DNA from: Streptomyces nigrescens
GTDB lineage: Bacteria; Actinomycetota; Actinomycetes; Streptomycetales; Streptomycetaceae
Length of the DNA stretch: 64,000 bases
Reading direction: 5' to 3'
NCBI GenBank assembly: GCA_024349765.1
Contig: AP026073.1
Coordinates: 2,976,001 to 3,040,000 of the forward strand
Part shown: positions 41,164 to 53,172 of the stretch, in pieces
Layout: each line of letters begins with the position of its first letter
Position numbering within the stretch: the first letter of the stretch is position 1
The notes under the pieces: generated by a model
Database searches by the model: none
What the model saw: the letters and a program-made list of their open reading frames with translations, nothing else
Told to the model about the DNA's origin: nothing
Position numbers and translations under genes: made by a program

Positions 41164-42846
41164 GTGCCGTTCATCACGCAGCTGCGTCAGCTCCTGGCCA
41201 AGGGGACGAACCGGCGCCGGCGGCGGGCCGTCACGTCCGCCCTCGCCGCCGTGCTCGTGTTCGGCGCGCTCGTCCTGCCCGACGACCTGCTCCGCCTGAC
41301 GCCCGGCGCGTTCGTCCGGATACCGGTGGAGGGCATCGCCGGTGCCGCGCTGCTGCTCCTGCTGCCGCCGCGGCCGCGGCGGGTCGTCGCGGTGCTCGCC
41401 GGGGCGGGCCTGGGCCTGATGACCCTGCTCGACCTCCTCAACATGGGCTTCCGCGCGGTGCTGGTCAGGCCGTTCGACCCGGTGCTGGACTGGGGGCTGT
41501 TCGGCGACGCCGCGTCGTTCCTCGACGACTCGGCGGGCCGGACCGGTGCGATCGCCGCGGTCGTCGGGGCCGTGCTCGTCGCGCTCGCCCTGCCCGTGCT
41601 GATGGCGCTGGCCGTGCTCCGGCTCAGCCACGTCCTGGCCCGGCACAGCTCCCTGGCCACCCGCGGCACCCTCGTCCTCGGTACCGCCTGGCTCGTCAGC
41701 GCCGCGCTCGGCCTCCAGCTCGCCGGGGCGCCGCTCGCCTCCCGCACCACCGCCGAACACCTCGACGACCGCGCCCAGCAGGTGCGGACGAGCCTCGCGG
41801 ACGAGCGGGTCTTCGCCGCGGAAGCGGCCACCGACCCCTTCGGCAGCACGCCGCCCGACCAACTGCTGAACGGCCTGCGCGGCAAGGACGTCATCTTCAC
41901 CTTCATCGAGAGCTACGGCCGCAGCGCGATAGACGACCCGGGGATAGGCCCCGGCGTCGACAAGGTGCTCGCGGACGGGACCGAGCAGTTGCGGCGGGCC
42001 GGCTTCACCGCCCGGAGCGGCTGGCTCACCTCCTCGACGGCGGGCGGCGGCAGCTGGCTGGCGCACTCCACCTTCCTGTCCGGCCTGTGGATCAACAACC
42101 AGCAGCGCTACCGCACCGTCACCTCCAGCGACCGGATGAGCCTGACCCGCGCCTTCCGGCGGACCGGCGCCTGGCGGACGGTCGGCATCATGCCGGGCGT
42201 CAGCCGGTCCTGGCCGGAGGCCCGCTTCTACGGCCTCGACACCGTCTACGACTCCCGCACGCTCGGCTACCACGGCCCGAAGTTCAGCTGGTCGCGGATG
42301 CCGGACCAGTACAGCCTGTCCGCGTTCGAGCGGCTGCAGCACGGCAAGCGGGGCGGCAAGCCGCTGATGTCGGAGATCATCCTGACCTCCAGCCACAACC
42401 CGTGGGCCCCGCTGCCCAAGATGCTCGGCTGGGGCCGGGTCGGCGACGGCTCGGTCTACCGTGCCGTCGAGGCGGCCGGCAAGGACCCCAAGGACGTGTG
42501 GCAGGACGCCGCCCGGGTCCGCACCGAGTACGGCCGGGCCATCCAGTACTCGCTGCACAGCCTGCTCTCGTACGTCGAGAAGTACGGCCGGAAGAACACT
42601 GTGCTGGTCTTCCTCGGCGACCACCAGCCGGTCCCCACCGTCACCGGTGAGCACGCCGGCCGGGACGTACCGGTGGCGATCGTCGCCCATGACCCGGCCG
42701 TGCTGCGCCGGATCTCCGACTGGGGCTGGCAGCCCGGCCTCCGGCCCGGACCCAAGACGCCGGTCTGGCGGATGGACACCTTCCGCGACCGCTTCCTGAC
42801 CGCCTACGGACCCCGGTCCGGCTCCGCGCACAAGGGGAAGAAGTGA
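41164..42846 (+). CDS. Membrane sulfatase/alkaline phosphatase-superfamily protein
   Basis: Encodes 560 residues. The N-terminal 210 have about five transmembrane helices (SALAAVLVFGALVLPDDLL to LGTAWLVSAALGLQL), then an extracellular hydrolase domain: DVIFTFIESYGRSAI, the nucleophile region STAGGGSWLAHSTFLSG and metal-site FLGDHQPVPTV. This is the architecture of LtaS-like phosphoglycerol transferases and related sulfatases; some Streptomyces relatives carry the misleading name CDP-alcohol phosphatidyltransferase. Likely role: cell-envelope polymer modification. GTG 41164 with GGAAGGACC. Confidence 0.88.
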   Translation: MPFITQLRQLLAKGTNRRRRRAVTSALAAVLVFGALVLPDDLLRLTPGAFVRIPVEGIAGAALLLLLPPRPRRVVAVLAGAGLGLMTLLDLLNMGFRAVLVRPFDPVLDWGLFGDAASFLDDSAGRTGAIAAVVGAVLVALALPVLMALAVLRLSHVLARHSSLATRGTLVLGTAWLVSAALGLQLAGAPLASRTTAEHLDDRAQQVRTSLADERVFAAEAATDPFGSTPPDQLLNGLRGKDVIFTFIESYGRSAIDDPGIGPGVDKVLADGTEQLRRAGFTARSGWLTSSTAGGGSWLAHSTFLSGLWINNQQRYRTVTSSDRMSLTRAFRRTGAWRTVGIMPGVSRSWPEARFYGLDTVYDSRTLGYHGPKFSWSRMPDQYSLSAFERLQHGKRGGKPLMSEIILTSSHNPWAPLPKMLGWGRVGDGSVYRAVEAAGKDPKDVWQDAARVRTEYGRAIQYSLHSLLSYVEKYGRKNTVLVFLGDHQPVPTVTGEHAGRDVPVAIVAHDPAVLRRISDWGWQPGLRPGPKTPVWRMDTFRDRFLTAYGPRSGSAHKGKK

Positions 42847-42990: not shown

Positions 42991-44514
42991 ATGAGCTTCA
43001 ACCTCGCCACCGCTCTTCGTGAATCCCGCCGGAACCACCCGGACAAACCCCTGTGCCACCTCGGGGCCCGGACCGTCAGCTACGCCGGGGCCGACGAGAC
43101 CTCCGGCCGGATCGCCGCGGTCCTGCGCGCGCTGGGCCTGGAACGCGGTGATGCGGTCGCCGTCCACCTGCCCAACGTGCCGGAGTTCCTGTTCGCCTAC
43201 TTCGGCATCCTCAAGGCCGGTCTGGTCATGGTCCCGCTCAACCCCCTGCTCACGGCCCCCGAGATCGCCTACCACCTCACCGACTCGGGGGCCCGGCTGC
43301 TCCTCACCCACGAGGAGTTCGCCGACGGTGCGGTCAAGGGCGCCGAACTCGCCGGCGGCGTACCGGCGTACGTCGTCCCGCGGCCCGGCAGCACGCGGCG
43401 GATCGCCGGCACCCGGCCCTACGACGAGCTCACCACCGCCGACGACACCGGCGAGATCGAGCCGGCCGGCGCCGACGACACCGCCGTCCTGCTCTACACC
43501 AGCGGCACCACCGGCCGCCCCAAGGGCGCCGAACTCACCCACTTCCAGCTCTACATGAACTGCACCGTCACCGGCGAGGTGTTCGGCTACCGCCCCGACG
43601 ACATCGGCCTCGCGGTGCTGCCGCTCTTCCACGTCTTCGGCCTCTCCAGCGTCCTCAACCTGGCCGTGCGGCACGGCGGCACGCTGGCCCTGGTCCCGCG
43701 GTTCGAGACCGGTGCGGTCCTCGACGCGCTCGAACGGCACCGCTGCACGATCTTCGCCGGCGTCCCCACCATGTACGCGGCCCTCCTCCAGGCCGACACC
43801 GCGCACCGGGATCTGAGCGCGCTGCGCGTCGGGGTCTCCGGCGGCGCGGCGATTCCGGGCGAGACCATCCGGGCCTTCGAGGAGAAGTTCCCCGGCGTGG
43901 CGGTCCTGGAGGGCTACGGCCTGTCCGAGACGGCCAGTACCGCCACCTTCAACATCAGCCCCGAGCAGCGCAAGGTGCTCTCCATCGGCAAGCCCATCTG
44001 GGGCGTGGAGGTGCGGATCGCCGACGACACCGGCGCCGCGCTGCCTCCCGGCCCCGACCACGTGGGCGAGATCCTGATCCGCGGCCACAACGTCATGAAG
44101 GGCTACTTCCGCCGCCCCGAGGAGACCGCCGAGGCGCTGCGCGGCGGCTGGCTGCACACCGGGGACCTCGGCTACCGGGACGACGACGGCTACTTCTTCG
44201 TCGTCGACCGCAAGAAGGACCTGATCATCCGCGGCGGCTACAACGTGTACCCGCGCGAGGTCGAGGAGGTCCTGTACGCCCACCCGGCCGTCGCCGAGGC
44301 CGCGGTCATCGGCCGTGCCGACGACCGGCTCGGCGAGGAGGTCGTCGCCGTCGTCGCGCTGTGCCGCGGTGCGCACACCACCCCCGAGGAACTCACCGCC
44401 CACTGCCGGCAACAGCTTGCCGCGTACAAATACCCCCGGGAGATCCGGATCGTCGACGCGCTGCCCAAGGGGCCCACCGGCAAGATCCTCAAGAAGGAGC
44501 TGCGCGCCCGATGA
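42991..44514 (+). CDS. Long-chain fatty acid-CoA ligase (AMP-binding)
   Basis: Encodes 507 residues of the ANL adenylating superfamily. P-loop-like LLYTSGTTGRPKGAELTH, the A5 GYGLSETASTATFN, A7 WLHTGDLGYRDDDGYF and A10 catalytic Lys in LPKGPTGKILKKEL are complete. Activates a carboxylic acid, most likely fatty or aromatic, to its CoA thioester via an AMP ester. ATG 42991 has AGGAG; stop overlaps the following ATG (ATGA), so a phosphotriesterase-like gene was once its translational partner. Confidence 0.93.
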   Translation: MSFNLATALRESRRNHPDKPLCHLGARTVSYAGADETSGRIAAVLRALGLERGDAVAVHLPNVPEFLFAYFGILKAGLVMVPLNPLLTAPEIAYHLTDSGARLLLTHEEFADGAVKGAELAGGVPAYVVPRPGSTRRIAGTRPYDELTTADDTGEIEPAGADDTAVLLYTSGTTGRPKGAELTHFQLYMNCTVTGEVFGYRPDDIGLAVLPLFHVFGLSSVLNLAVRHGGTLALVPRFETGAVLDALERHRCTIFAGVPTMYAALLQADTAHRDLSALRVGVSGGAAIPGETIRAFEEKFPGVAVLEGYGLSETASTATFNISPEQRKVLSIGKPIWGVEVRIADDTGAALPPGPDHVGEILIRGHNVMKGYFRRPEETAEALRGGWLHTGDLGYRDDDGYFFVVDRKKDLIIRGGYNVYPREVEEVLYAHPAVAEAAVIGRADDRLGEEVVAVVALCRGAHTTPEELTAHCRQQLAAYKYPREIRIVDALPKGPTGKILKKELRAR

Positions 44515-44955
44515 CGCGGGTGAACGCCGCGCTCGGCCCGGTCGACAGCGCGGAGCTGGGACGCACGTACGTCCATGAGCACCTCTTCACCCTCACCGCC
44601 GACGTACATGCCAACTACCCCAAGGAGTGGGGGAGCGAGGAGGGGCGGGTGGCCGACGCGGTCGACAAGCTGCGCGCGCTGGCCGCCCAGGGCGTCCGCA
44701 CCCTCGTCGACCCGACCGTGGTCGGTCTCGGCCGCTACATCCCCCGGGTACGGCGCATCGCCGAGAGGAGCGCCGACCGCACCCTGATCGAGATGTGCCG
44801 CCGCGGATACGCGGAGAGCCTCGGAGCAGTGGCCCTACCTGCACCTCGGCGAGGAGGTCCTGCCGTACGTCCGGGCCCGCGGGGTGACGGAGGAGCAGAT
44901 CACCACCATGCTCGTCGGCAATCCGCGGCGGCTGTTCGAGGGCGCTGGAGCCTGA
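44511..44955 (+). pseudogene. Phosphotriesterase-family gene reduced by internal deletions
   Basis: ATG 44511 starts a phosphotriesterase-related sequence (LGRTYVHEHLFTLTADVHAN, with the metal-site HEH) intact for about 95 residues. It then joins directly to a C-terminal-type MCRRGYAES and, by a second jump and frame change at about 44820, to EQWPYLHLGEEVLPYVRARG, VTEEQITTMLVGNPRRLFEG, ending TGA 44953-44955. About 600 bp of the barrel, with the remaining metal ligands, are missing. No working enzyme can result. Family members hydrolyse organophosphates or lactones. The intact-looking ends suggest rather recent loss. Confidence 0.85.
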
Positions 44956-45118
44956 CCGTCGGCTGACGACCCGTGTCTCTCTGTTTATGTCTTTGGCATA
45001 TGCCAATGACCCGTGCCGTCATGCATATACAGAAAAGCGGACATAGTATCAAAAAGCGTCCAGGTTGACGTCGCAGGGCGGTTGGCGTCCGTCCGGTCAC
45101 GGGAGGAGGCGGTTCGCT
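44956..45118. promoter_or_regulatory. AT-rich promoter-like region with 14-bp palindrome before the GGDEF-EAL operon
   Basis: This stretch is markedly less GC-rich than the rest of the window. TTGGCATATGCCAA at 44993-45006 is a perfect 14-bp palindrome, about 113 bp before the TTG start, and CATATAC plus TAGTATC follow downstream as possible minus-10 boxes. It is a good operator candidate for the six-gene block that follows. Strong GGGAGGAGG ribosome site at 45101-45109. Confidence 0.5.
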
Positions 45119-48100
45119 TTGAGCCGCATACACCGCCTGATGGCCGCGTACGTCATCCTCGTGATCCCGCCCACGGTGGTCTATCTGACGGTGCCCGCCG
45201 CCCACACGTACACCTGGGCCGCCATCGTCCTCGGCAACGTATGGGCCATCATCGCCGGCATCCGCATGCACCGGCCGGCCCACGCCTGGCCCTGGCTGCT
45301 GCTCGCCGCCGCGAACCTGGCCTTCATGGCCGGCGACACCACGTACAACGTGCTCAACAGCTTCCTGCACCAGGAGAACCCGTTCCCCTCCCTCGCCGAC
45401 GTCTTCTACCTGGCGACCTACCCACTGTTCGCCGCCGGACTGCTGGGCTTCATCCGCTACCGCCGGACCGGCCGCGACGTGGCGAGCCTGCTGGACGCGA
45501 TGATCCTCACGTCCGGCCTGGCCCTGCTCTCCTGGGACTACCTGATCAACCCGTACACCACGGCCGCCGACATGACGTGGGTGCAGCGCTCCATCTCCAT
45601 CGCCTATCCGCTCGGCGACGTGCTGATGCTGGCGATGCTCGCCCGGCTGCTGACCCCGGGCTCGGTACGGACCCGCGCCGTCCAGTTCCTCACCCTCGGC
45701 ACCTTCGGCATTCTCTTCTCCGATGTGCTCTACGGGCTCCTCCAGCTCAAAGGGGCCTGGCAGGTCGGCACGCCGATGGACCTGGGCTGGGTGGTCTTCT
45801 TCACCGCCTGGGGCCTGGCCGCACTGCACCCGTCCATGGTGGAACTGACCGAGCGCACCCCCGTCCGGCAGGCCGGCATCCACCCCCGGCGGCTCGCCGT
45901 GCTCGCGCTGGCCTCGCTCATCGCGCCCGTGCTGCTCATCCAGGAGGCCGTCCGCGGCCAGCTGCAGCAGGTGCCCGTGATCGCGGTGTTCTCGGCCGTG
46001 CTCTTCCTGCTCGTGTTCGCCCGGCTGTCGGGACTGGTCGTGGTGCACCTGAGGGCCGTGACCCGCGAACGCGGCCTGCGGGTGGCGGCCGCCGCGCTGG
46101 TGTCCACGTCCGGCGTCGAGGAGATCGCCCACTCGATCCGCCGAGCGGCCGGACCGCTCTTCGGCTCCGGAGTGAGCCACGAGGTCGCCCTGCTGACCCT
46201 CGCCCCCGGCGAGACCCGGCTGCACTCCGTGCCCACCACCGCCCAGCCGCACACCTGGACCGTCGACTGGCAGGACGAGCCGGCCGACGCCTGGCGCCCC
46301 CGGTTCCTCGCCCGCGAGACGCAGATCGTGTGCGTCACCGACCTCGGCGACCAGGCCGTCGCGGAACTCGCCCCGCTGCCCAGCGCGCTGCTGTGCCCAC
46401 TGGCCGTCAGCAACGGTCCCGCCGGCAACTCCCTGATCGGCGCCCTGATCGTCGCCGGCACCGAGAAGAGCCTGGCCGAGCGGTGGGGCTCCTTCGAGAC
46501 CCTCGCCGCGCAGGCGGCCCTGGCGATGGAACGCGTCGCGCTCGGTCAGGAGATCAACCGGCGCAACAGCGAGGCGTACTTCCGCACCCTGGTGCACAAC
46601 ACCTCGGACGTCATCCTCATTCTCGACGACGACAACACCATCCGCTACGCCAGCCCCTCCGCGGAGGGCATGTTCGGCCGCACCCCGCTCAACGGAGTGC
46701 GCCTCGCCGAGCTGATGAGCGAACCGGACGGCGAACGCGCCCTGCGCGCCCTGGGCCGGATGCGCGACGGCGACTGCCAGGACAGCCGCGACGACTGGCA
46801 GGTCCTGCACCGCGACGGCGCCCGCATCGACGTCGAGGCCCGGTGCAGCAACCTGCGGCACGACCAGACCGTCCACGGCCTGGTCCTGACCCTCCGGGAC
46901 GTGACCGAGCAGCGCAAACTCGAACGCGAACTCACCCACCGCGCCTTCCACGACGCGCTCACCGGCCTGCCCAACCGGCTGCTCCTCCTGGAGCGGATCG
47001 AGCACGCCCTGCTGCGCGGCCGCCGCGACGGCACCGTCCCCTGCGTCCTCTTCATCGACCTCGACGACTTCAAGGTCGTCAACGACACCAGCGGCCACTC
47101 CATCGGCGACGAACTGCTGATCGCGGTGGCACGACGGCTGACCGGCACGATGCGGGCCAGCGACACCGCCGCGCGCCTGGGCGGCGACGAGTTCGGGGTC
47201 CTCATGGAAGGCGTGCGCGAGCCCGCCGACGCCGAGGCACTCGGCGAACAGGTCGTACAGAACCTCAACCAGCCCTTCCGGCTCTCCGAGCAGATGGTCA
47301 GCACCTCCGCCAGCGTGGGCATCGCCACCGCCCGGGACAGCGCCGACGCCGAGGAACTGCTCGGCCACGCCGACCTGGCCCTGTACGCCGCGAAGACGGC
47401 CGGCAAGCGGCAGTGGCGCCGCTACCAGGCGGGGCTGCACACCGGCATGCTCGAACGGCACGAACTCCGGGCCCGGCTGGAGGGCGCACTGGACGCCGAG
47501 GCGTTCGACGTCCGCTACCAGCCCATCGTGGAGATCGCGACCGGCGCGCTCGCCGGCTTCGAGGCGCTGGCCCGCTGGCCGCACGCCCGCCGCGGCTCGG
47601 TGACGCCCCATCAGTTCATCGCGCTCGCCGAGGAGACCGGGCACATCATGCCGCTCGGCGCCTGGGTGCTCCAGCAGGCCACCGCCAACCTCGCCCGCTG
47701 GCAGCGGGAGGTGCCCCGGCCGGACCCGCTGCACATCAATGTGAACGTCTCCGCCCGGCAGTTCCGCGACCCCGGCTTCCTCGACGAGGTCCGTGCCGTC
47801 CTCGGCGCCACCGGCGTGGCCCACGGCTCCCTCGTGCTGGAGCTGACCGAGACCGTCCTGATGCATACCGACGAGCAGATCCGCGCGGTGATGAGGGCGC
47901 TCAAGGACCTCGGCGTGCGCATGGCGATCGACGACTTCGGCACCGGCTTCTCGTCGCTCAGCTATCTCCGGGAATTCCCCATCGACCTGCTGAAGGTCGA
48001 CAAATCATTCATCGACGACATAGGTGTCGACACCCAGCAAGTCGCCCTGGTCGAGGGTATTGTGCGCATCGCCGACACCCTCGGTCTGCAGGTCATCGCC

Positions 48101-49597
48101 GAAGGCATCGAAGAGGACGTGCAACGGGACCGGCTCCTGGCCATGGGGTGCCGGTTCGGACAGGGCTATCTGTACGCCCGCCCGATGACGGTGGACCAGG
48201 CGGAACAGCTGCTGCGGAGCACGGCCGAGCGCCGGGCCCCGGCCCTGGCCGGCAGCGCGGCGACCAGCCCGGTATCCCGCCGGACCACCGCACCCTCAGA
48301 CCCACAGCGCACCGGTACCCGCCGGTCCGGGGCGGAGGAGGATCACGTGCACAAGGCACTGAGGACAACCGGCGGAGCACGGCGCGATCCGCGGTGGGGC
48401 GAGCTCGAACGCCTGCGGCAGACCAACCCCATGTGCGACGCGGTCATCGACGAGGTGGACGGCCGGCACCTGCGCAGCGGCGACCACTGGCTCATCGACT
48501 TCGCCTCCTGCAACTACCTGGGCTTCGACCTCGACCCCGAGATCATGGCCGCCATCGAACCGCAGGTACGGCGCTGGGGCACCCACCCCAGCTGGTCACG
48601 GCTGATCGGCAACCCCCGGCTCTACCCCGACATCGAGGACCGGCTCACCGCACTGCTCCACGCCCAGGACAGCCTGCTGCTCCCGACCATCACCCTCATC
48701 CACGCGTCCGTGATACCGGTACTCGGCGGCGAGGGAAACATCTTCGTCGAGGCCCGGGCCCACCGCACGGTCTACGACGGATGCCTGGTGGCCCGGGGGC
48801 AGGGCGCCACCGTGCAGCGCTTCCACGCCGACCGGCCGGACGAACTGGAGGTCCTGCTGCGGTCGGCGCCGCCCGGAGCCTCCCGCCTGGTGTGCCTGGA
48901 CGGCGTCGACAGCATGACCGGGAACCTCCCCGACCTGCCCCTCCTCGCGGGCATCTGCCGGCAACGGGACGCCCTGCTCTACATCGACGACGCGCACGGA
49001 TTCGGCGTCATCGGCGAGCGCGGCACCGACGAGACCTCCCCGTACGGCAGCCGCGGCAACTGCATCGTGCGGCACCTCGGCGAGACCTACGACGGCATCG
49101 TCCTGGTCGGCGGCTTCTCCAAGGCGTACTCCTCGCTGCTGGCGTTCCTGGCCCTGCCGACGTGGATGAAGAACCACCTCAAGGTCGCCGCCGCGCCGTA
49201 CCTGTACTCCGGGCCGTCCCCCACGGCGTCGCTGGCCACCGCGCTCGCCGGTCTCGACGTCAACGACCGGCGCGGGGACACCGTCCGGGCCGCCCTGCAC
49301 CGCAAGACCGCCCGGGTCCTGGACCACCTCTACCTGCTGGGCATCGAGACCCCCAACGAAAGCGGACTGCCCATCATCGAGCTCCCGCTCGCCCACGACT
49401 CCGACCTGGACGACGTCGGCCTGTTCATGTGGGACCGCGGCATCTACGTGACGCTGGCGGCGTACCCCCTCGTCCCGCGCGACCGGGTGGGCATCCGCAT
49501 CCAGGTCACCGCCGCGAACACCGACGAGGACATCGGCCGGCTCAACGAGACGATCTCCGCCCTGGCCGAGCGGTTCGAACTCCGGCAGAGGACCTGA
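45119..49597 (+). CDS. Membrane GGDEF-EAL cyclic di-GMP protein, in frame with a C-terminal alpha-oxoamine synthase
   Basis: TTG 45119 (GGAGGAGG 9 bp upstream) opens a 1492-residue frame. Residues about 5-320: eight or more membrane helices; 320-470: GAF-like; 480-600: PAS (NTSDVILILDDDNTIRYASP); GGDEF with RLGGDEFGVLM near 685 and an I-site RASD five residues before; EAL near 812 (FEALARW), with IDDFGTGFSSLSYL and EGIE. Both enzyme motifs look intact, so synthesis and breakdown of c-di-GMP are possible. There is no stop after the EAL domain: a low-GC3 linker (about residues 1048-1075) leads into the PLP enzyme described at 48347-49597. Either one fused protein is made or the second enzyme starts internally. 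Confidence 0.85.
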   Translation: MSRIHRLMAAYVILVIPPTVVYLTVPAAHTYTWAAIVLGNVWAIIAGIRMHRPAHAWPWLLLAAANLAFMAGDTTYNVLNSFLHQENPFPSLADVFYLATYPLFAAGLLGFIRYRRTGRDVASLLDAMILTSGLALLSWDYLINPYTTAADMTWVQRSISIAYPLGDVLMLAMLARLLTPGSVRTRAVQFLTLGTFGILFSDVLYGLLQLKGAWQVGTPMDLGWVVFFTAWGLAALHPSMVELTERTPVRQAGIHPRRLAVLALASLIAPVLLIQEAVRGQLQQVPVIAVFSAVLFLLVFARLSGLVVVHLRAVTRERGLRVAAAALVSTSGVEEIAHSIRRAAGPLFGSGVSHEVALLTLAPGETRLHSVPTTAQPHTWTVDWQDEPADAWRPRFLARETQIVCVTDLGDQAVAELAPLPSALLCPLAVSNGPAGNSLIGALIVAGTEKSLAERWGSFETLAAQAALAMERVALGQEINRRNSEAYFRTLVHNTSDVILILDDDNTIRYASPSAEGMFGRTPLNGVRLAELMSEPDGERALRALGRMRDGDCQDSRDDWQVLHRDGARIDVEARCSNLRHDQTVHGLVLTLRDVTEQRKLERELTHRAFHDALTGLPNRLLLLERIEHALLRGRRDGTVPCVLFIDLDDFKVVNDTSGHSIGDELLIAVARRLTGTMRASDTAARLGGDEFGVLMEGVREPADAEALGEQVVQNLNQPFRLSEQMVSTSASVGIATARDSADAEELLGHADLALYAAKTAGKRQWRRYQAGLHTGMLERHELRARLEGALDAEAFDVRYQPIVEIATGALAGFEALARWPHARRGSVTPHQFIALAEETGHIMPLGAWVLQQATANLARWQREVPRPDPLHINVNVSARQFRDPGFLDEVRAVLGATGVAHGSLVLELTETVLMHTDEQIRAVMRALKDLGVRMAIDDFGTGFSSLSYLREFPIDLLKVDKSFIDDIGVDTQQVALVEGIVRIADTLGLQVIAEGIEEDVQRDRLLAMGCRFGQGYLYARPMTVDQAEQLLRSTAERRAPALAGSAATSPVSRRTTAPSDPQRTGTRRSGAEEDHVHKALRTTGGARRDPRWGELERLRQTNPMCDAVIDEVDGRHLRSGDHWLIDFASCNYLGFDLDPEIMAAIEPQVRRWGTHPSWSRLIGNPRLYPDIEDRLTALLHAQDSLLLPTITLIHASVIPVLGGEGNIFVEARAHRTVYDGCLVARGQGATVQRFHADRPDELEVLLRSAPPGASRLVCLDGVDSMTGNLPDLPLLAGICRQRDALLYIDDAHGFGVIGERGTDETSPYGSRGNCIVRHLGETYDGIVLVGGFSKAYSSLLAFLALPTWMKNHLKVAAAPYLYSGPSPTASLATALAGLDVNDRRGDTVRAALHRKTARVLDHLYLLGIETPNESGLPIIELPLAHDSDLDDVGLFMWDRGIYVTLAAYPLVPRDRVGIRIQVTAANTDEDIGRLNETISALAERFELRQRT
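48347..49597 (+). CDS. Alpha-oxoamine synthase (BioF/KBL/CqsA-type PLP enzyme), probable internal start
   Basis: GTG 48347, preceded by GGAGGAGG at ideal spacing, gives a 416-residue protein of normal length for alpha-oxoamine synthases. FASCNYLGFDLDPEIMAAIE, SRLIGNPRLYPDIEDRL, YIDDAHGFGVIGERG and GGFSKAYSSLLAF (PLP lysine) are family motifs. These enzymes condense an amino acid with an acyl-CoA or acyl-ACP, losing CO2, to make alpha-aminoketones: biotin precursor, aminolevulinate, sphingoid bases, or the CAI-1/LAI-1 type signals of CqsA and LqsA. No biotin genes are near. The next gene starts immediately after the stop (TGAATG). Confidence 0.85.
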   Translation: MHKALRTTGGARRDPRWGELERLRQTNPMCDAVIDEVDGRHLRSGDHWLIDFASCNYLGFDLDPEIMAAIEPQVRRWGTHPSWSRLIGNPRLYPDIEDRLTALLHAQDSLLLPTITLIHASVIPVLGGEGNIFVEARAHRTVYDGCLVARGQGATVQRFHADRPDELEVLLRSAPPGASRLVCLDGVDSMTGNLPDLPLLAGICRQRDALLYIDDAHGFGVIGERGTDETSPYGSRGNCIVRHLGETYDGIVLVGGFSKAYSSLLAFLALPTWMKNHLKVAAAPYLYSGPSPTASLATALAGLDVNDRRGDTVRAALHRKTARVLDHLYLLGIETPNESGLPIIELPLAHDSDLDDVGLFMWDRGIYVTLAAYPLVPRDRVGIRIQVTAANTDEDIGRLNETISALAERFELRQRT

Positions 49598-50875
49598 ATG
49601 CGCGTCATGGAGGATGCGGGCCGGGCCCGCCGGGTACGGCTGCTCACCCCGCTCGCCCACCGCGACTTCCGGGTCCTGTGGATCGGGATGAGCATCTCGC
49701 TGGTGGGCGACGGGGTGCTGCTCGTCGCCCTGGCCTGGCAGGTCTACACGCTGTCCGGCTCACCCGGCGCGATGTCCGCGGTCGGCGTCGCACGGGCCGT
49801 GCCGCAGGTCGCCCTGGTGCTGCTCGGCGGAGTGGTCAGCGACCGCTTCGACCGCCGGCGCACCATGCTGATCAGCGACCTCGTCCGCTTCTTCTGCCTG
49901 CTCACGCTGGCCGCCCTGGCCCTCGGCGACGCCCTGGAGCTGTGGCAGCTGATCGTCGTGGTCATGGTGTACGGCGGCGCCGCCGGATTCTTCCCCCCGG
50001 CCTACGACGCCGTCGTGCCGACCCTCGTCCTGAAGTCCGAACTCGTCCAGGCCAACGCCCTCGACCAGTTCGTCCGCCCGGCCGCCGTCCAGATCGGCGG
50101 CACCGCGCTGGGCGGCATCCTGGTCGCCGCCATCGGCACCGGCGGGGCGTTCGCGTTCGACGCGCTCACCTTCGCCGTGTCCGTCGGCTGCCTGCTGTGC
50201 ATCCGCCCCAAGCCGCCACCGGCCGGCGACCGGGGATCGCTCTGGGCCGACCTGCTCAGCGGTCTGGCGTACGTCCGCGCCAACAGCTGGCTCTGGGCCA
50301 CCTTCGTCTCCGCCACCTTCGCCTACCTGCTCTTCCTCGGCCCGGCCGAGGTGCTGCTGCCCTACCTGATCAAGAACGGACTGCACGGTTCCGCCGCGGA
50401 CCTGGGCGTGGTGCTCACCTCCGGCGGGCTGGCGTCCGTGCTGGTCGCCCTGGCCGTCGGCCAGACCGGGGTGCCGAGCAGGTTCATCACCTTCGTGTAC
50501 GTCTCCTGGACGCTGGCCACGCTCGCCGTCGCCGGGTACGGCCTGGCCACCCACTCCTGGCAGCTGGCGATCGCCTGCGCCGCCGTCAACGGCTTCGAGA
50601 CCGCCGGCCTGGTCGCCTGGGCCACCGCGAAGCAGCGGCTCGTACCGGGTGCCCTGCTCGGCCGGGTCTCCAGCGTCGAATGGTTCGTGTCGATCTCCCT
50701 GCTGCCGCTGTCCTACGCCCTGGCCGCGCCGGTCGCGGCCGCCGCCGGCGTCCGGGCGACCCTCATCGGCGCCGGCGTCCTCGGGGCCGTCGTCACCTTG
50801 GTCTTCCTCTACGTGCCGGGCGTACGCTCGGTGGACCGGGGCAGTGCGCCCCGCACCGCGAAAGAGGGCACATGA
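49598..50875 (+). CDS. MFS transporter (enterobactin exporter-like subgroup)
   Basis: Encodes 425 residues with about 12 membrane helices. LTPLAHRDFRVLWIGMSISL and the cytoplasmic loop GGVVSDRFDRRRTMLISDLV between helices 2 and 3 are typical of MFS exporters of the MFS_3/EntS branch. It starts directly after the alpha-oxoamine synthase stop and its own stop overlaps the methyltransferase ATG. The likely role is export of the product of the flanking enzymes, or self-protection. Confidence 0.9.
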   Translation: MRVMEDAGRARRVRLLTPLAHRDFRVLWIGMSISLVGDGVLLVALAWQVYTLSGSPGAMSAVGVARAVPQVALVLLGGVVSDRFDRRRTMLISDLVRFFCLLTLAALALGDALELWQLIVVVMVYGGAAGFFPPAYDAVVPTLVLKSELVQANALDQFVRPAAVQIGGTALGGILVAAIGTGGAFAFDALTFAVSVGCLLCIRPKPPPAGDRGSLWADLLSGLAYVRANSWLWATFVSATFAYLLFLGPAEVLLPYLIKNGLHGSAADLGVVLTSGGLASVLVALAVGQTGVPSRFITFVYVSWTLATLAVAGYGLATHSWQLAIACAAVNGFETAGLVAWATAKQRLVPGALLGRVSSVEWFVSISLLPLSYALAAPVAAAAGVRATLIGAGVLGAVVTLVFLYVPGVRSVDRGSAPRTAKEGT

Positions 50876-51672
50876 AAGAGCCCGCCGAGCGCCCGCCGGG
50901 TCCGGTCCGCAACGACGACGCCGACTGGGACCACTGGCCGGTTCTGGACTACCTCGCGGAGAACTACCGCGAGATCCACCCCTGCGACGCCGCCGTCATC
51001 CGGCACCACTCCGCCTTCTACCGCCGGTTCGCGCCCGGCAGCATCGCCCGGTCGCTGGAATTCGGCGCGGGCCCCAACCTCTACCCGCTGATGCTGGCCG
51101 GCGCCGCCAGCCGGCGGGTGGACGCGGTCGAGCGGAGCGCGGCCAACGTCGCCTACCTGACCGGCCAGCTCAGCCACGGCCCCGACGAGAGCTGGCAGGC
51201 GTTCTACGCCTTCTGCCGCGAGCTGGACCCCGCACTGCCCCCGACCGCCACCCAGGCCCTGGCCCGCGTCCACGTGCTGCACGACGACGTCCGGACCCTG
51301 CCGGCCGGCACCTACGAGCTGGCGTCGATGAACTTCGTGGCCGAGAGCATCACCGAGGACTTCGAGGAATTCGCGCAGCTCTGCCGCATCTACATCGCCA
51401 CGGTGCGCCCGGGCGGCCTCCTCGTCGCCTCCTTCATGGAGAACATGCCGACCTACCGCATCGGCACCGCCCCCGCATGGCCCGGCTGCCCGGTCGACGC
51501 CACCGTCCTCCGCGAGGTCTTCGGCCCGTACACCGACGATCTGGTCCTCACCCATGTGGGCCCCGACCCGACCCGCCCCGACTACGGCGACACCGGCATG
51601 GTGCTGCTCCGCGCCCGCACCCTCGGACCGGACGGAAAAGCGGCGGCGGGCCGGCGGGACGACCGGGCATAA
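50872..51672 (+). CDS. NNMT/PNMT/TEMT-like SAM-dependent methyltransferase
   Basis: Encodes 266 residues. RSLEFGAGPNLYPLMLAGAA is the SAM site; the GxGPxxYxLL form, the upstream REIHPCDAAVIRHHSAFYR and the later VRPGGLLVASFMENMPTYRIG resemble the nicotinamide / phenylethanolamine / thioether N- or S-methyltransferase family (PF01234). This would suit methylation of an amine, such as the amino group left by an alpha-oxoamine synthase. ATG 50872 overlaps the MFS stop (ATGA). Confidence 0.8.
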   Translation: MKEPAERPPGPVRNDDADWDHWPVLDYLAENYREIHPCDAAVIRHHSAFYRRFAPGSIARSLEFGAGPNLYPLMLAGAASRRVDAVERSAANVAYLTGQLSHGPDESWQAFYAFCRELDPALPPTATQALARVHVLHDDVRTLPAGTYELASMNFVAESITEDFEEFAQLCRIYIATVRPGGLLVASFMENMPTYRIGTAPAWPGCPVDATVLREVFGPYTDDLVLTHVGPDPTRPDYGDTGMVLLRARTLGPDGKAAAGRRDDRA

Positions 51673-51710
51673 TCGGTCAACTGTCCCTATCTCCGCCCTG
51701 GGAGCCCGCC

Positions 51711-52466
51711 ACGTCCGCCGAGCCGCCCGCGCCGTCCTCTCCACCGCGCCCGCTGACCTGGGACGAACTCGACCCGCAGCGCCATCCGTTCCCCTTCGAC
51801 GCGGCGGAAGAGGCCACCGTCACCGCCCTGATCAAGGAGTACGTCCCGCCCGTGCTGTCCGGCATGTCCGGCTGGTGGCAGGGGGAGCGCTGGTGCGAGC
51901 GCCACATCGACCGGATCTTCCTGGAGCGCTACGGTCCGTGGGCCCGGCACTGGAACTGGACCGTCGGCGAGGCCGGGGGAGTGGTCGGCAGCTGGTGCTG
52001 CGGTCCCGCCTCGGTGAGCACGCCCGACGAGACCGCCCGCCGGGCCGTCGCCGCCCTCCTGGAATGGCGGGACTGGCTGGAGGAACTCGCCGTCCGCTTC
52101 GGCGAGTTGGCGCCACCCGCGAAGGCGGCCCCGGAGGAGCGCAGCTGGCACCTGGAGCGGGCGGCGGTCCGCCTGGTCACCCTCGTGCTCGACCGCACCG
52201 GCGCGGAGAGCGGCTGGTACGGCCAGTGCCGGCTGGCGCTGGAGTGGTTCCTGACCTCGACCGGCATGGACCGGGCGGCGGCCGACGCGGCGGTGGAGGC
52301 CGCCATCGGCGGGCGGTTCCGGAGCTGGGCCGCGCCCGGCCCGATGCTCATCGACTCGGTCGGCGAGGACCTGGCCGTCGGCCTGACCGGCCGTCAGCCC
52401 TACCGCGACCACCGGGAACACGCCCACCTGGAGGAGTTCCATGACCGCCGGCACACCCGCCACTGA
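51711..52466 (+). CDS. Unknown protein upstream of Fic, apparent ACG start
   Basis: A coding frame of 251 residues ends at TGA 52464-52466. Its natural beginning is TSAEPPAPSSPPRPLTWDEL, preceded by GGGAG at correct spacing, but the first codon is ACG at 51711; no ATG, GTG or TTG lies nearby in frame, the next being GTG in PPVLSG and ATG in SGMSGWWQ about 50 residues in. It either uses ACG, starts later, or is silenced. The sequence (WWQGERWCERHIDRIFLERY, then WNWTVGEAGGVVGSWCCGP, EWRDWLEELAVRFGEL) is Trp-rich and soluble; no known family. It overlaps the fic gene by 26 bp, so it is likely its functional partner. Confidence 0.65.
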   Translation, partial: TSAEPPAPSSPPRPLTWDELDPQRHPFPFDAAEEATVTALIKEYVPPVLSGMSGWWQGERWCERHIDRIFLERYGPWARHWNWTVGEAGGVVGSWCCGPASVSTPDETARRAVAALLEWRDWLEELAVRFGELAPPAKAAPEERSWHLERAAVRLVTLVLDRTGAESGWYGQCRLALEWFLTSTGMDRAAADAAVEAAIGGRFRSWAAPGPMLIDSVGEDLAVGLTGRQPYRDHREHAHLEEFHDRRHTRH

Positions 52467-53172
52467 CGCGGAGCCGGCCGCCACCGCCGGCGATGCGACG
52501 GCCGCCTGGCGCCGGACCAGGGCGCGGGTGGACTGGGCGCACACCGGCGCCTACGAGGGCACCGGCCCGGTCGTCCCGGCCACGGACGGCTTCACCGCCT
52601 GGTGCGAGGGTCCGGTCCGCCGCCGCGACCCGGTCCGCGCCGAGCGGCTGCGGTCCGCCTACACGCTGGCCCGCGCGGACGCGGCGAGCCGCGCCCCGTT
52701 CACCTTCGGCCTGCTGGCCGGCTGGCAGCGCCTGGTCCTCGGCACCGCCGACGCACCGTTCCGGACCGGCGACGCGCACGCGAAGAACGGCCGCGAACGC
52801 TATCCGCTGACCCCGCACACCCGCGCGGACCTCGCCCGCTGCCTGCGCGACAGCGACGAGCCGGGCCTGCCGCTGCCCGCCCGCGCCGCCCGGACCTACC
52901 TCGACGTGGCCTTCCACCACCCCTTCCCCGACGGCAACGGCCGGGCCGCCCTGCTCGCCCTCACCTTCGTCCTGGCCCGCGACGGCGTCGTCCTGGACGA
53001 AGTGGGCCCCCTCCAGACCACCCGCTACGCCGACGACCCCGACGGCGCGGCCGACCTCGCCGTACTGGTGGGGATCCTGGCGCGGGCGACCGTGCGCCGC
53101 GCGGCCCGCCCCCGGCCACGGCCCGACAGCCACCGCGCCCCCACGAAGACCGCCGCGGTGAGCACCAGATAA
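52441..53172 (+). CDS. Fic family protein with variant active site
   Basis: Encodes 243 residues. The Fic core motif appears as HHPFPDGNGRAALL near residue 160: the catalytic His, the acidic residue and GNGR are present, but the second Arg of the canonical HPFx(D/E)GNGRxxR is Leu. Fic enzymes transfer AMP, other NMPs or phosphate to protein hydroxyls. No S/TxxxE(G/N) inhibitory motif is obvious at either end. ATG 52441 follows GGAGGAG and overlaps the preceding gene; the pair recalls a toxin/modulator unit. Its 3' end overlaps the convergent CPBP gene by 148 bp. Confidence 0.85.
   Translation: MTAGTPATDAEPAATAGDATAAWRRTRARVDWAHTGAYEGTGPVVPATDGFTAWCEGPVRRRDPVRAERLRSAYTLARADAASRAPFTFGLLAGWQRLVLGTADAPFRTGDAHAKNGRERYPLTPHTRADLARCLRDSDEPGLPLPARAARTYLDVAFHHPFPDGNGRAALLALTFVLARDGVVLDEVGPLQTTRYADDPDGAADLAVLVGILARATVRRAARPRPRPDSHRAPTKTAAVSTR

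What the first reader, a model, noticed from the sequence alone, without database searches (positions are those of the whole stretch)
45119..53172. Candidate new system: c-di-GMP protein linked to alpha-oxoamine synthase, exporter, methyltransferase and Fic unit
Six coding segments follow one another with fusion, zero-gap (TGAATG), ATGA overlap, a 38-bp gap and a 26-bp overlap. Content is a membrane GGDEF-EAL protein, a CqsA/BioF-type PLP synthase, an MFS exporter, an NNMT-like methyltransferase, an unknown protein and a Fic protein. Established knowledge: alpha-oxoamine synthases make aminoketones, including CqsA/LqsA autoinducers. Inference: the block makes, methylates and exports a small amine or ketone signal or metabolite, under control of c-di-GMP or of the membrane sensor. 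I know of no described system with this set.
Basis: partly seen in the sequence, partly recalled or inferred. Interest (0 to 1): 0.8.

Follow-up and report, generated by a model that had tools for sequence, protein, structure and literature searches.

The report
Signal-maker fused to membrane c-di-GMP sensor
A soil bacterium encodes one long membrane protein that joins a sensor, the enzymes that make and destroy an internal messenger, and an enzyme that should build a small aminoketone; the pairing recurs across distant actinobacteria, which suggests a chemical signalling system in which maker and receiver travel together.

Summary
The block is real. Its core is one open frame (45119-49597, 1,492 aa): ten transmembrane helices, GAF, PAS, GGDEF, EAL and an alpha-oxoamine synthase (AOS). 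The fusion is conserved: of 25 AOS-bearing genomes among 150 Streptomyces sampled, 16 have it and 9 have the genes adjacent (one pair broken). The AOS is a clade apart from BioF, KBL, HemA, SPT and the genome's two other AOS-like genes.

Among 396 Actinomycetota genomes AOS occurs in 26; 25 also carry the sensor at E<=1e-30, and outside Streptomyces the sensor lies near the AOS in 23 of 24 loci. The constant partner is the 10-TM sensor, not the c-di-GMP output: 4 of the 24 have a histidine kinase instead, 3 have both. An MFS exporter and amine-modifying enzymes (NNMT-like methyltransferase, GNAT, Leu/Phe-tRNA transferase) accompany it by lineage. I infer a synthase-receptor signalling module, working like CqsA/CqsS or LqsA/LqsS but built from other families, mostly with c-di-GMP output. 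Product and ligand are unproven; regulated biosynthesis is the main rival. The unknown protein and the Fic gene are not part of it. S. venezuelae CdgF, of undefined function, may be a member (inference).

The parts
44993..45006 (.). TTGGCATATGCCAA perfect palindrome upstream of the operon, candidate operator
   Evidence: Sequence; the 12-bp core TGGCATATGCCA is kept in L004 and L005 and in L192 with one change; no test of function
45119..49597 (+). Fused gene: 10TM-GAF-PAS-GGDEF-EAL-AOS, one open frame of 1,492 codons plus stop
   Evidence: fused frame in 72 of 101 related locus entries, some genomes fetched twice
45119..46540 (+). Sensor: ten transmembrane helices (about residues 3-328) and GAF domain (about 333-473)
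   Evidence: AlphaFold2 model, mean pLDDT 91.5; Foldseek PDB: none at E<=0.001, the high-probability hits are mostly GAF-domain proteins; no Pfam family over it
46577..46915 (+). PAS domain
   Evidence: Pfam PF08448/PF13426/PF00989
46943..47410 (+). GGDEF domain with intact GGDEF and RxxD site (role of RxxD recalled)
   Evidence: PF00990, 153 bits; D and E of GGDEF invariant in 91 of 91 relatives
47471..48184 (+). EAL domain with intact motifs
   Evidence: PF00563, 245.5 bits; E of EAL and DDFG invariant in 91 of 91
48334..48349 (+). Internal Shine-Dalgarno-like GGAGGAGG and in-frame GTG: possible separate start of a free AOS
   Evidence: Sequence; same in L004, L005, L084, near-same in L033; a 5-6 base match at a start codon in 12 of 72 fused entries
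48347..49597 (+). Alpha-oxoamine synthase (Lys259, Asp214, His139, Arg384 in AOS numbering; their roles recalled from BioF/KBL)
   Evidence: PF00155; bioF model 163.5 bits against cut-off 426; Lys259 in 103 of 105, Arg384 in 105 of 105; model pLDDT 93.7, best PDB match ThaOS TM 0.85
49598..50875 (+). MFS exporter (MFS_3 / H+ antiporter type; EntS- and Tet(V)-like)
   Evidence: PF05977, TIGR00900 229.5 bits, below its cut-off 319.6; homologue near the AOS in 10 of 24 non-Streptomyces loci and 8 of the 80 loci
50872..51672 (+). SAM-dependent methyltransferase, NNMT/PNMT-like, nearest SCO2525 family
   Evidence: NF040568 120 bits (cut-off 240); PF01234 21 bits (cut-off 25); PDB NNMT E=0.076

Best explanation
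A self-contained chemical-signalling module. The AOS domain condenses an amino acid with an acyl thioester to make a small alpha-aminoketone. A modifying enzyme (here an NNMT-like methyltransferase) caps it and the MFS protein exports it. The 10-TM domain is the receptor for that product (or its modified form) and passes occupancy through GAF and PAS to the GGDEF/EAL pair, setting c-di-GMP. In most Streptomyces copies synthase and receptor are fused, so maker and reader are inherited and placed together. Shown: the fused frame, its conservation, intact catalytic motifs, the near-obligate pairing of AOS with the 10-TM sensor, and exchange of the output domain behind the sensor. Inferred: product class, export, that the product is the ligand, and the direction of signalling.
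For: (1) AOS genomes carry the sensor: 25 of 25 in the genus sample; 25 of 26 in the phylum sample at E<=1e-30, the last with a split, weaker copy. Sensor without AOS: 3 of 125 and 21 of 370. (2) Sensor in the fetched stretch around the AOS in 23 of 24 non-Streptomyces loci, while 21 of these 24 genomes have only 1-2 sensor matches. (3) The output changes while sensor and AOS stay: kinase and no GGDEF-EAL seen in the stretch in L169, L173, L181, L183; both in L164, L167, L171. In the sensor tree the L183 kinase and L184 GGDEF-EAL sensors are sisters (100), and the kinase and GGDEF-EAL sensors of L164/L167 fall in one 5-row set (98). (4) MFS homologue in 10 of 24. (5) In L183/L184 the AOS lies behind an AMP-ligase (fatty-acyl type in L183) and a carrier domain in one protein, pointing to an acyl substrate. 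(6) Catalytic motifs kept. (7) Synthase of AOS type beside a membrane sensor kinase is the layout described for Cqs and Lqs (passages of PMC3376566).
Against: No ligand, product or phenotype is known. The sensor family is wider than the pairing: 21 of 370 AOS-less genomes have it, and 20 fetched sensor loci from such genomes showed varied outputs and no AOS. Four Streptomyces sensor copies have neither AOS nor the NRPS-like substitute. In 9 of the 80 loci the sensor was not found: seven are of the Frankia group, six of them with another GGDEF-EAL protein, whose membrane part (L060) resembles the window sensor only weakly (24%, E 6e-4), and two are non-actinobacterial; L185 also lacks it. MFS is in only 8 of 80, three of them Streptomyces. 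Fusion is equally expected if the sensor controls the enzyme. The CqsA-type model is a distant match (64 of 428 bits). The methyltransferase assignment is below both curated cut-offs.
Confidence: 0.5

Rival explanations
1. Regulated biosynthesis: the sensor detects an unrelated cue, and c-di-GMP (or the state of the GGDEF-EAL part) switches the fused AOS on or off. The product is a metabolite, not the ligand.
For: Fusion in one polypeptide suits allosteric control; R and D of the RxxD site are each kept in 85 of 91; the sensor family is also found without AOS.
Against: In 4 of 24 non-Streptomyces loci the partner is a histidine kinase and no GGDEF-EAL was seen in the stretch; AOS and sensor genes are often separate, in either order, or on opposite strands.
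Confidence: 0.3
2. The AOS makes an envelope lipid or housekeeping metabolite (sphingoid-like base), and the sensor monitors the membrane.
For: AOS model close to serine palmitoyltransferase (3a2b, TM 0.81); ligase-carrier-AOS variants; an AMP-binding ligase gene lies just upstream in the window and, 93% identical, in L004.
Against: Patchy distribution, 25 of 150 Streptomyces; MFS_3-type exporter in some lineages. Lipid genes in the neighbourhoods were not excluded: the recurrent neighbour clusters were mostly not annotated.
Confidence: 0.12
3. The fusion is only a missing stop codon: two separate proteins are made, linked only by translation coupling.
For: The window and its nearest kin carry GGAGGAGG-GTG at the AOS start; 9 of 25 Streptomyces sample genomes have separate genes.
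Against: 72 of 101 locus entries keep one frame, and only 12 of these 72 have a 5-6 base ribosome-site match at a start codon in the stretch scanned; the distance from a motif at the end of EAL to one near the start of AOS is 72-133 residues in 52 fused loci.
Confidence: 0.1
4. The AOS is BioF for biotin, placed here by chance.
For: bioF is the best NCBIfam model.
Against: 163.5 bits against a cut-off of 426; separate clade with 100 support in a quick tree; conserved sensor pairing.
Confidence: 0.01

Closest known systems
CqsA/CqsS (Vibrio) and LqsA/LqsS (Legionella) alpha-hydroxyketone quorum sensing
   Same: AOS-type synthase encoded beside a polytopic membrane sensor; in L183 the sensor is a hybrid histidine kinase
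   Different: AOS does not reach the CqsA-type model (64 of 428 bits); sensor has ten helices, not six, and mostly GGDEF-EAL output; synthase and sensor fused in most Streptomyces copies; MFS and amine-modifying genes; actinobacterial
CdgF of Streptomyces venezuelae (10TM-PAS-PAC-GGDEF-EAL; PMC6205966, PMC13232838)
   Same: Same described domain order for the sensor/c-di-GMP half; membrane-bound
   Different: No passage that I read mentions an AOS at or beside CdgF; whether vnz02140 is fused could not be checked here
BioF, KBL, ALAS, SPT and other alpha-oxoamine synthases
   Same: Fold and catalytic lysine; substrate-binding arginine (role recalled)
   Different: Own clade; fused to or beside a membrane signalling protein
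DPO pyrazinone autoinducer (and AI-3, recalled)
   Same: DPO is made from an alpha-aminoketone by N-aminoacylation and ring closure (abstract of PMC12930378); relevant to relatives that carry a Leu/Phe-tRNA transferase homologue
   Different: DPO apparently has no dedicated synthase (same abstract); the window lineage has a methyltransferase instead

Membership tests
CqsA/LqsA alpha-hydroxyketone synthase family | Match to the curated model NF005526 above cut-off | tested here: not met
   64.1 bits against 428
CqsA/LqsA alpha-hydroxyketone synthase family | Position in a tree with CqsA/LqsA sequences | not tested
CqsS/LqsS sensor | Six-TM sensor with histidine kinase output (PMC3376566 passages) | tested here: not met
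   Ten helices and GGDEF-EAL; kinase output only in some relatives
Autoinducer synthase-receptor pair (works like) | Product is secreted and bound by the sensor | not testable with these tools
   Needs biochemistry
Alpha-oxoamine synthases | AOS fold and conserved active-site residues | tested here: met
   activity not assayed
BioF (biotin) | TIGR00858 above cut-off; groups with BioF | tested here: not met
   163.5 of 426 bits; separate clade
Bifunctional diguanylate cyclase/phosphodiesterase | Intact GGDEF and EAL motifs | tested here: met
   Motif residues kept in the window and each in 87-91 of 91 relatives; activity not assayed
CdgF orthologue group | Orthology to S. venezuelae vnz02140 | not testable with these tools
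NNMT/PNMT/TEMT methyltransferases | PF01234 above gathering score | tested here: inconclusive
   21.0 bits against 25; SCO2525 model 120 of 240

The most novel reading that the evidence does not exclude
A widespread actinobacterial signalling family in which 10-TM receptors are paired with dedicated makers of alpha-aminocarbonyl signals that are diversified by changing the amine cap: N-methyl (Streptomyces), N-acyl via GNAT (some Micromonosporaceae), N-aminoacyl via a Leu/Phe-tRNA transferase homologue (Frankia group with AOS; Streptomyces with an MbtH-A-T-reductase protein in place of AOS). The N-aminoacyl products could close to pyrazinones, i.e. dedicated, tRNA-dependent enzymes for DPO-like signals. 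In most Streptomyces copies synthase, receptor and second-messenger enzyme are one polypeptide.
Probability: 0.22. Interest if true: 0.95.

Novelty: new variant of a known kind. Interest (0 to 1): 0.78.

Why it matters
c-di-GMP governs Streptomyces development, yet the signals read by its GGDEF/EAL proteins with sensory domains are unknown (passage of PMC6205966), and CdgF's function 'still needs to be defined' (PMC13232838). A sensor that carries its own putative ligand synthase gives a direct way to find such a signal: disable the synthase lysine, compare secreted metabolites, add them back and measure c-di-GMP. It would extend synthase-receptor signalling of the Cqs/Lqs layout, which a 2012 review calls apparently restricted to aquatic gamma-proteobacteria while naming homologues in some other proteobacteria (PMC3376566), to actinobacteria and to c-di-GMP output.

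Tried and rejected
BioF identity: rejected. Unknown protein and Fic as members: rejected (1 of 80 loci). Plasmid-borne close relatives: none at E<=1e-60; 610 plasmid records at E<=1e-6, all under 60% identity. Fold of the 10-TM part: no match at E<=0.001. Paper searches: AOS plus GGDEF plus Streptomyces, and two variants, 0 papers; AOS plus Streptomyces 8, CqsA/LqsA set 25 of which 15 were listed, autoinducer synthase/GGDEF/actinobacteria/pyridoxal 9: none on this by title; Leu/Phe-tRNA transferase with Streptomyces natural products 0. The careful AOS tree did not finish and the quick tree was used; it warns of long reference branches. In one search my label for L061 is wrong (it is AOS, GGDEF-EAL, MFS) and L193 was dropped because I gave wrong coordinates. 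One search left out sensor matches shorter than 230 query positions or with stops, and no Frankia row entered it.

Full report
What is there. The six segments are real. The GGDEF-EAL gene starts at TTG 45119 behind GGGAGGAGG and reads on without a stop into the AOS, ending at 49597: 1,492 codons and a stop. Pfam finds PAS, GGDEF and EAL in the first part and Aminotran_1_2 in the AOS, MFS_3 in the next gene, a weak NNMT/PNMT match in the methyltransferase, nothing in the unknown protein, and Fic in the last. The 38-bp gap is not secure: the first ATG/GTG/TTG in that frame is at 51852. The window's genome has 9.33 Mb and two further AOS-like genes at 30-32% identity.

The fusion is conserved. 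A scan of GTDB species genomes confirmed 200 relatives and kept the best 80 loci. Of these 80, 71 hold the same sensor domain over more than 100 residues, 55 the methyltransferase, 8 the MFS and 1 the unknown and Fic genes. Of 101 locus entries with AOS and a GGDEF-EAL match in the stretch (some genomes twice), 72 have one open frame; 17 have the GGDEF-EAL gene upstream but separate (in L075 more than 4 kb away); 4 have it downstream, 7 on the other strand; and 1 labelled partly fused is separate on a longer stretch. In the evenly drawn Streptomyces sample AOS is in 25 of 150 genomes: 16 fused, 9 with the genes adjacent, one of these (G009, L107/L195) broken in both genes. In L071 the AOS region has stop codons. 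The window and its close kin have a strong internal ribosome site with GTG at the AOS start, so free AOS may be made too; a 5-6 base match at a start codon occurs in 12 of the 72 fused entries.

The AOS goes with the sensor; the sensor also occurs alone. The 25 AOS genomes of the genus sample carry the sensor, against 3 of the 125 others (Fisher p 1.7e-25). In 396 Actinomycetota genomes the AOS is in 26 (22 of 236 genera) and the sensor in 46 at E<=1e-30, shared by 25; the remaining AOS genome, G306, has a split, weaker copy. I fetched the AOS loci of the 24 non-Streptomyces genomes: 23 hold the sensor within the stretch (in L169 with two genes between); L185 does not. Of these 24 genomes 21 have one or two sensor matches, three have 3, 6 and 7. 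Twenty fetched sensor loci from AOS-less genomes (not every such genome or copy was fetched) showed mixed outputs and no AOS.

Limits of the pairing. In 9 of the 80 loci the window's sensor was not found: seven Frankia-group loci (L060, L062, L072, L075-L078) and two outside Actinomycetota (L082, L083). Six of the Frankia-group loci have another GGDEF-EAL protein in the stretch (Pfam for L060); the membrane part of the L060 protein resembles the window sensor only weakly (24% over about 210 residues, E 6e-4 in a two-sequence comparison). L072 ends soon after the AOS.

The output changes, the sensor stays. In L169, L173, L181 and L183 the sensor is joined to a histidine kinase, in L183 a hybrid kinase with two receiver matches and Hpt; L164, L167 and L171 hold both a kinase and a GGDEF-EAL protein with this sensor near the AOS. 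In L177 the sensor is split between frames and its output was not identified. In a tree of 77 sensor domains (quick method, SH-aLRT only) the kinase sensor of L183 and the GGDEF-EAL sensor of L184 are sisters (100), and the kinase and GGDEF-EAL sensors of L164 and L167 fall in one five-row set (98). This is the main reason why I prefer 'the sensor reads the AOS product' to 'c-di-GMP controls the AOS'.

Product. The AOS family is a clade of its own (100) apart from E. coli BioF and KBL, Rhizobium HemA, part of an SPT, a Rubrobacter AOS and the two own paralogues (quick tree); several reference branches are long and the program warns about their joins. The best curated model is bioF at 163.5 of 426 bits; the CqsA-type model gives 64 of 428. 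The predicted structure (pLDDT 93.7) matches ThaOS, BioF, SPT and KBL. Lys259 is present in 103 of 105 and Arg384 in 105 of 105 relatives. In L183/L184 a 39-41%-identical AOS sits behind an AMP-ligase and a carrier domain in one protein; in L183 the ligase scores best among single-function models as fatty-acyl-AMP ligase, 451 bits, below that model's cut-off of 775. This points to an acyl chain as substrate there. GGDEF and EAL motif residues are each kept in 87-91 of 91, and R and D of RxxD each in 85 of 91.

Accessory enzymes differ by lineage. Streptomyces: NNMT-like methyltransferase, in 24 of 25 sample genomes by my reading (L085 keeps an 18-residue remnant). Some Micromonosporaceae (L063, L066, L069): a GNAT protein (Pfam for L063 and L069; L066 by clustering). 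Frankia group (L060, L062, L072, L075, L076, L077): a Leu/Phe-tRNA transferase family protein (Pfam for L062 and L075; the rest by clustering), next to the GGDEF-EAL gene in five of the six. MFS homologue: 10 of 24 non-Streptomyces loci. A sister operon in Streptomyces has a GGDEF-EAL protein with this sensor followed by MbtH-A-T-reductase and the transferase homologue (L034, L188, L189, L201-L204; Pfam for L189; its transferase scores 136.5 against the aat cut-off of 143.55). The transferase family is in only 8 of 150 Streptomyces genomes, 6 of them in this operon; the other two lie near NRPS-like genes with no such sensor seen; the window's genome has none. The six sampled sensors of this operon form one group (100) within a 26-row set (97) of Streptomyces sensors plus one from Actinocatenispora. 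I read this as replacement of AOS by another maker of an amino-carbonyl (inference). Ring closure of an N-aminoacyl-aminoketone to a pyrazinol is known for DPO (abstract of PMC12930378); applying it here is inference and does not cover the window's own methyltransferase version.

The sensor. AlphaFold2 gives ten long membrane helices and a GAF domain at pLDDT 91.5. Foldseek against the PDB finds nothing at E<=0.001, and its high-probability hits are mostly GAF-domain proteins. No Pfam family covers the membrane part.

Literature. PMC6205966 (abstract, passages, sections 8 and 9) lists S. venezuelae CdgF as 10TM-PAS-PAC-GGDEF-EAL with key residues in both domains, among the least expressed and without a developmental phenotype; what I read does not mention an AOS. 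PMC13232838 (passages) says that CdgF's function still needs to be defined. PMC3376566 (passages) describes Cqs/Lqs synthase-sensor pairs as apparently restricted to aquatic gamma-proteobacteria, and names homologues in some other proteobacteria. PMC4821796 (passages) reports that the CqsS membrane domain can regulate an adenylate cyclase, a precedent for exchanging outputs behind such a receptor. PMC12096830, PMC7026642 and PMC7911125 were searched for passages only and gave nothing on an AOS. The library holds open-licence PMC papers only, so absence from it is weak evidence of novelty.

Verdict. The linkage and the fused frame are solid and, as far as searched, undescribed. The signalling role is the best reading (0.5), with regulated biosynthesis the main rival (0.3).

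Noticed in passing
window 44511-44966: Phosphotriesterase-like ORF of 151 aa that matches only the first 76 of 298 profile positions; looks truncated. It has no match in L004, where the AMP-ligase gene is followed directly by the fusion gene.
   Followed up: partly
window 42991-44514: AMP-binding ligase gene directly upstream; 93% identical gene in the same place in L004, no match in L005, L006, L007, L073, L191 or L192. Could supply acyl-CoA or be unrelated.
   Followed up: partly
window 51852-53172: Unknown protein and Fic protein (HPFPDGNGR, Pfam cut-off passed) overlapping by 26 bp; possibly a separate two-gene unit. Start of the first is uncertain.
   Followed up: partly
L188, L189, L201-L204, L034: Streptomyces operon of a 10TM GGDEF-EAL protein, MbtH-A-T-reductase and a Leu/Phe-tRNA transferase homologue; the latter family is otherwise rare in the genus (8 of 150).
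   Followed up: partly
L214 (G146), L215 (G025): Two more Streptomyces Leu/Phe-tRNA transferase homologues lie beside NRPS-like genes with no GGDEF-EAL sensor seen; perhaps tRNA-dependent tailoring in natural product clusters.
   Followed up: no
L183:4907-8251, L184:6935-10165: Single proteins of AMP-ligase (fatty-acyl type in L183), carrier domain and AOS next to a 10TM kinase or a 10TM GGDEF-EAL protein.
   Followed up: partly
L082, L083: 44-45% identical AOS outside Actinomycetota (MAGs): L082 has a Cache-HAMP histidine kinase right downstream, L083 an AMP-binding gene about 1.1 kb upstream; no 10TM sensor match.
   Followed up: no
window 41164-42846: 560-aa ORF with no Pfam match, 96% identical in the same place in L004.
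   Followed up: no
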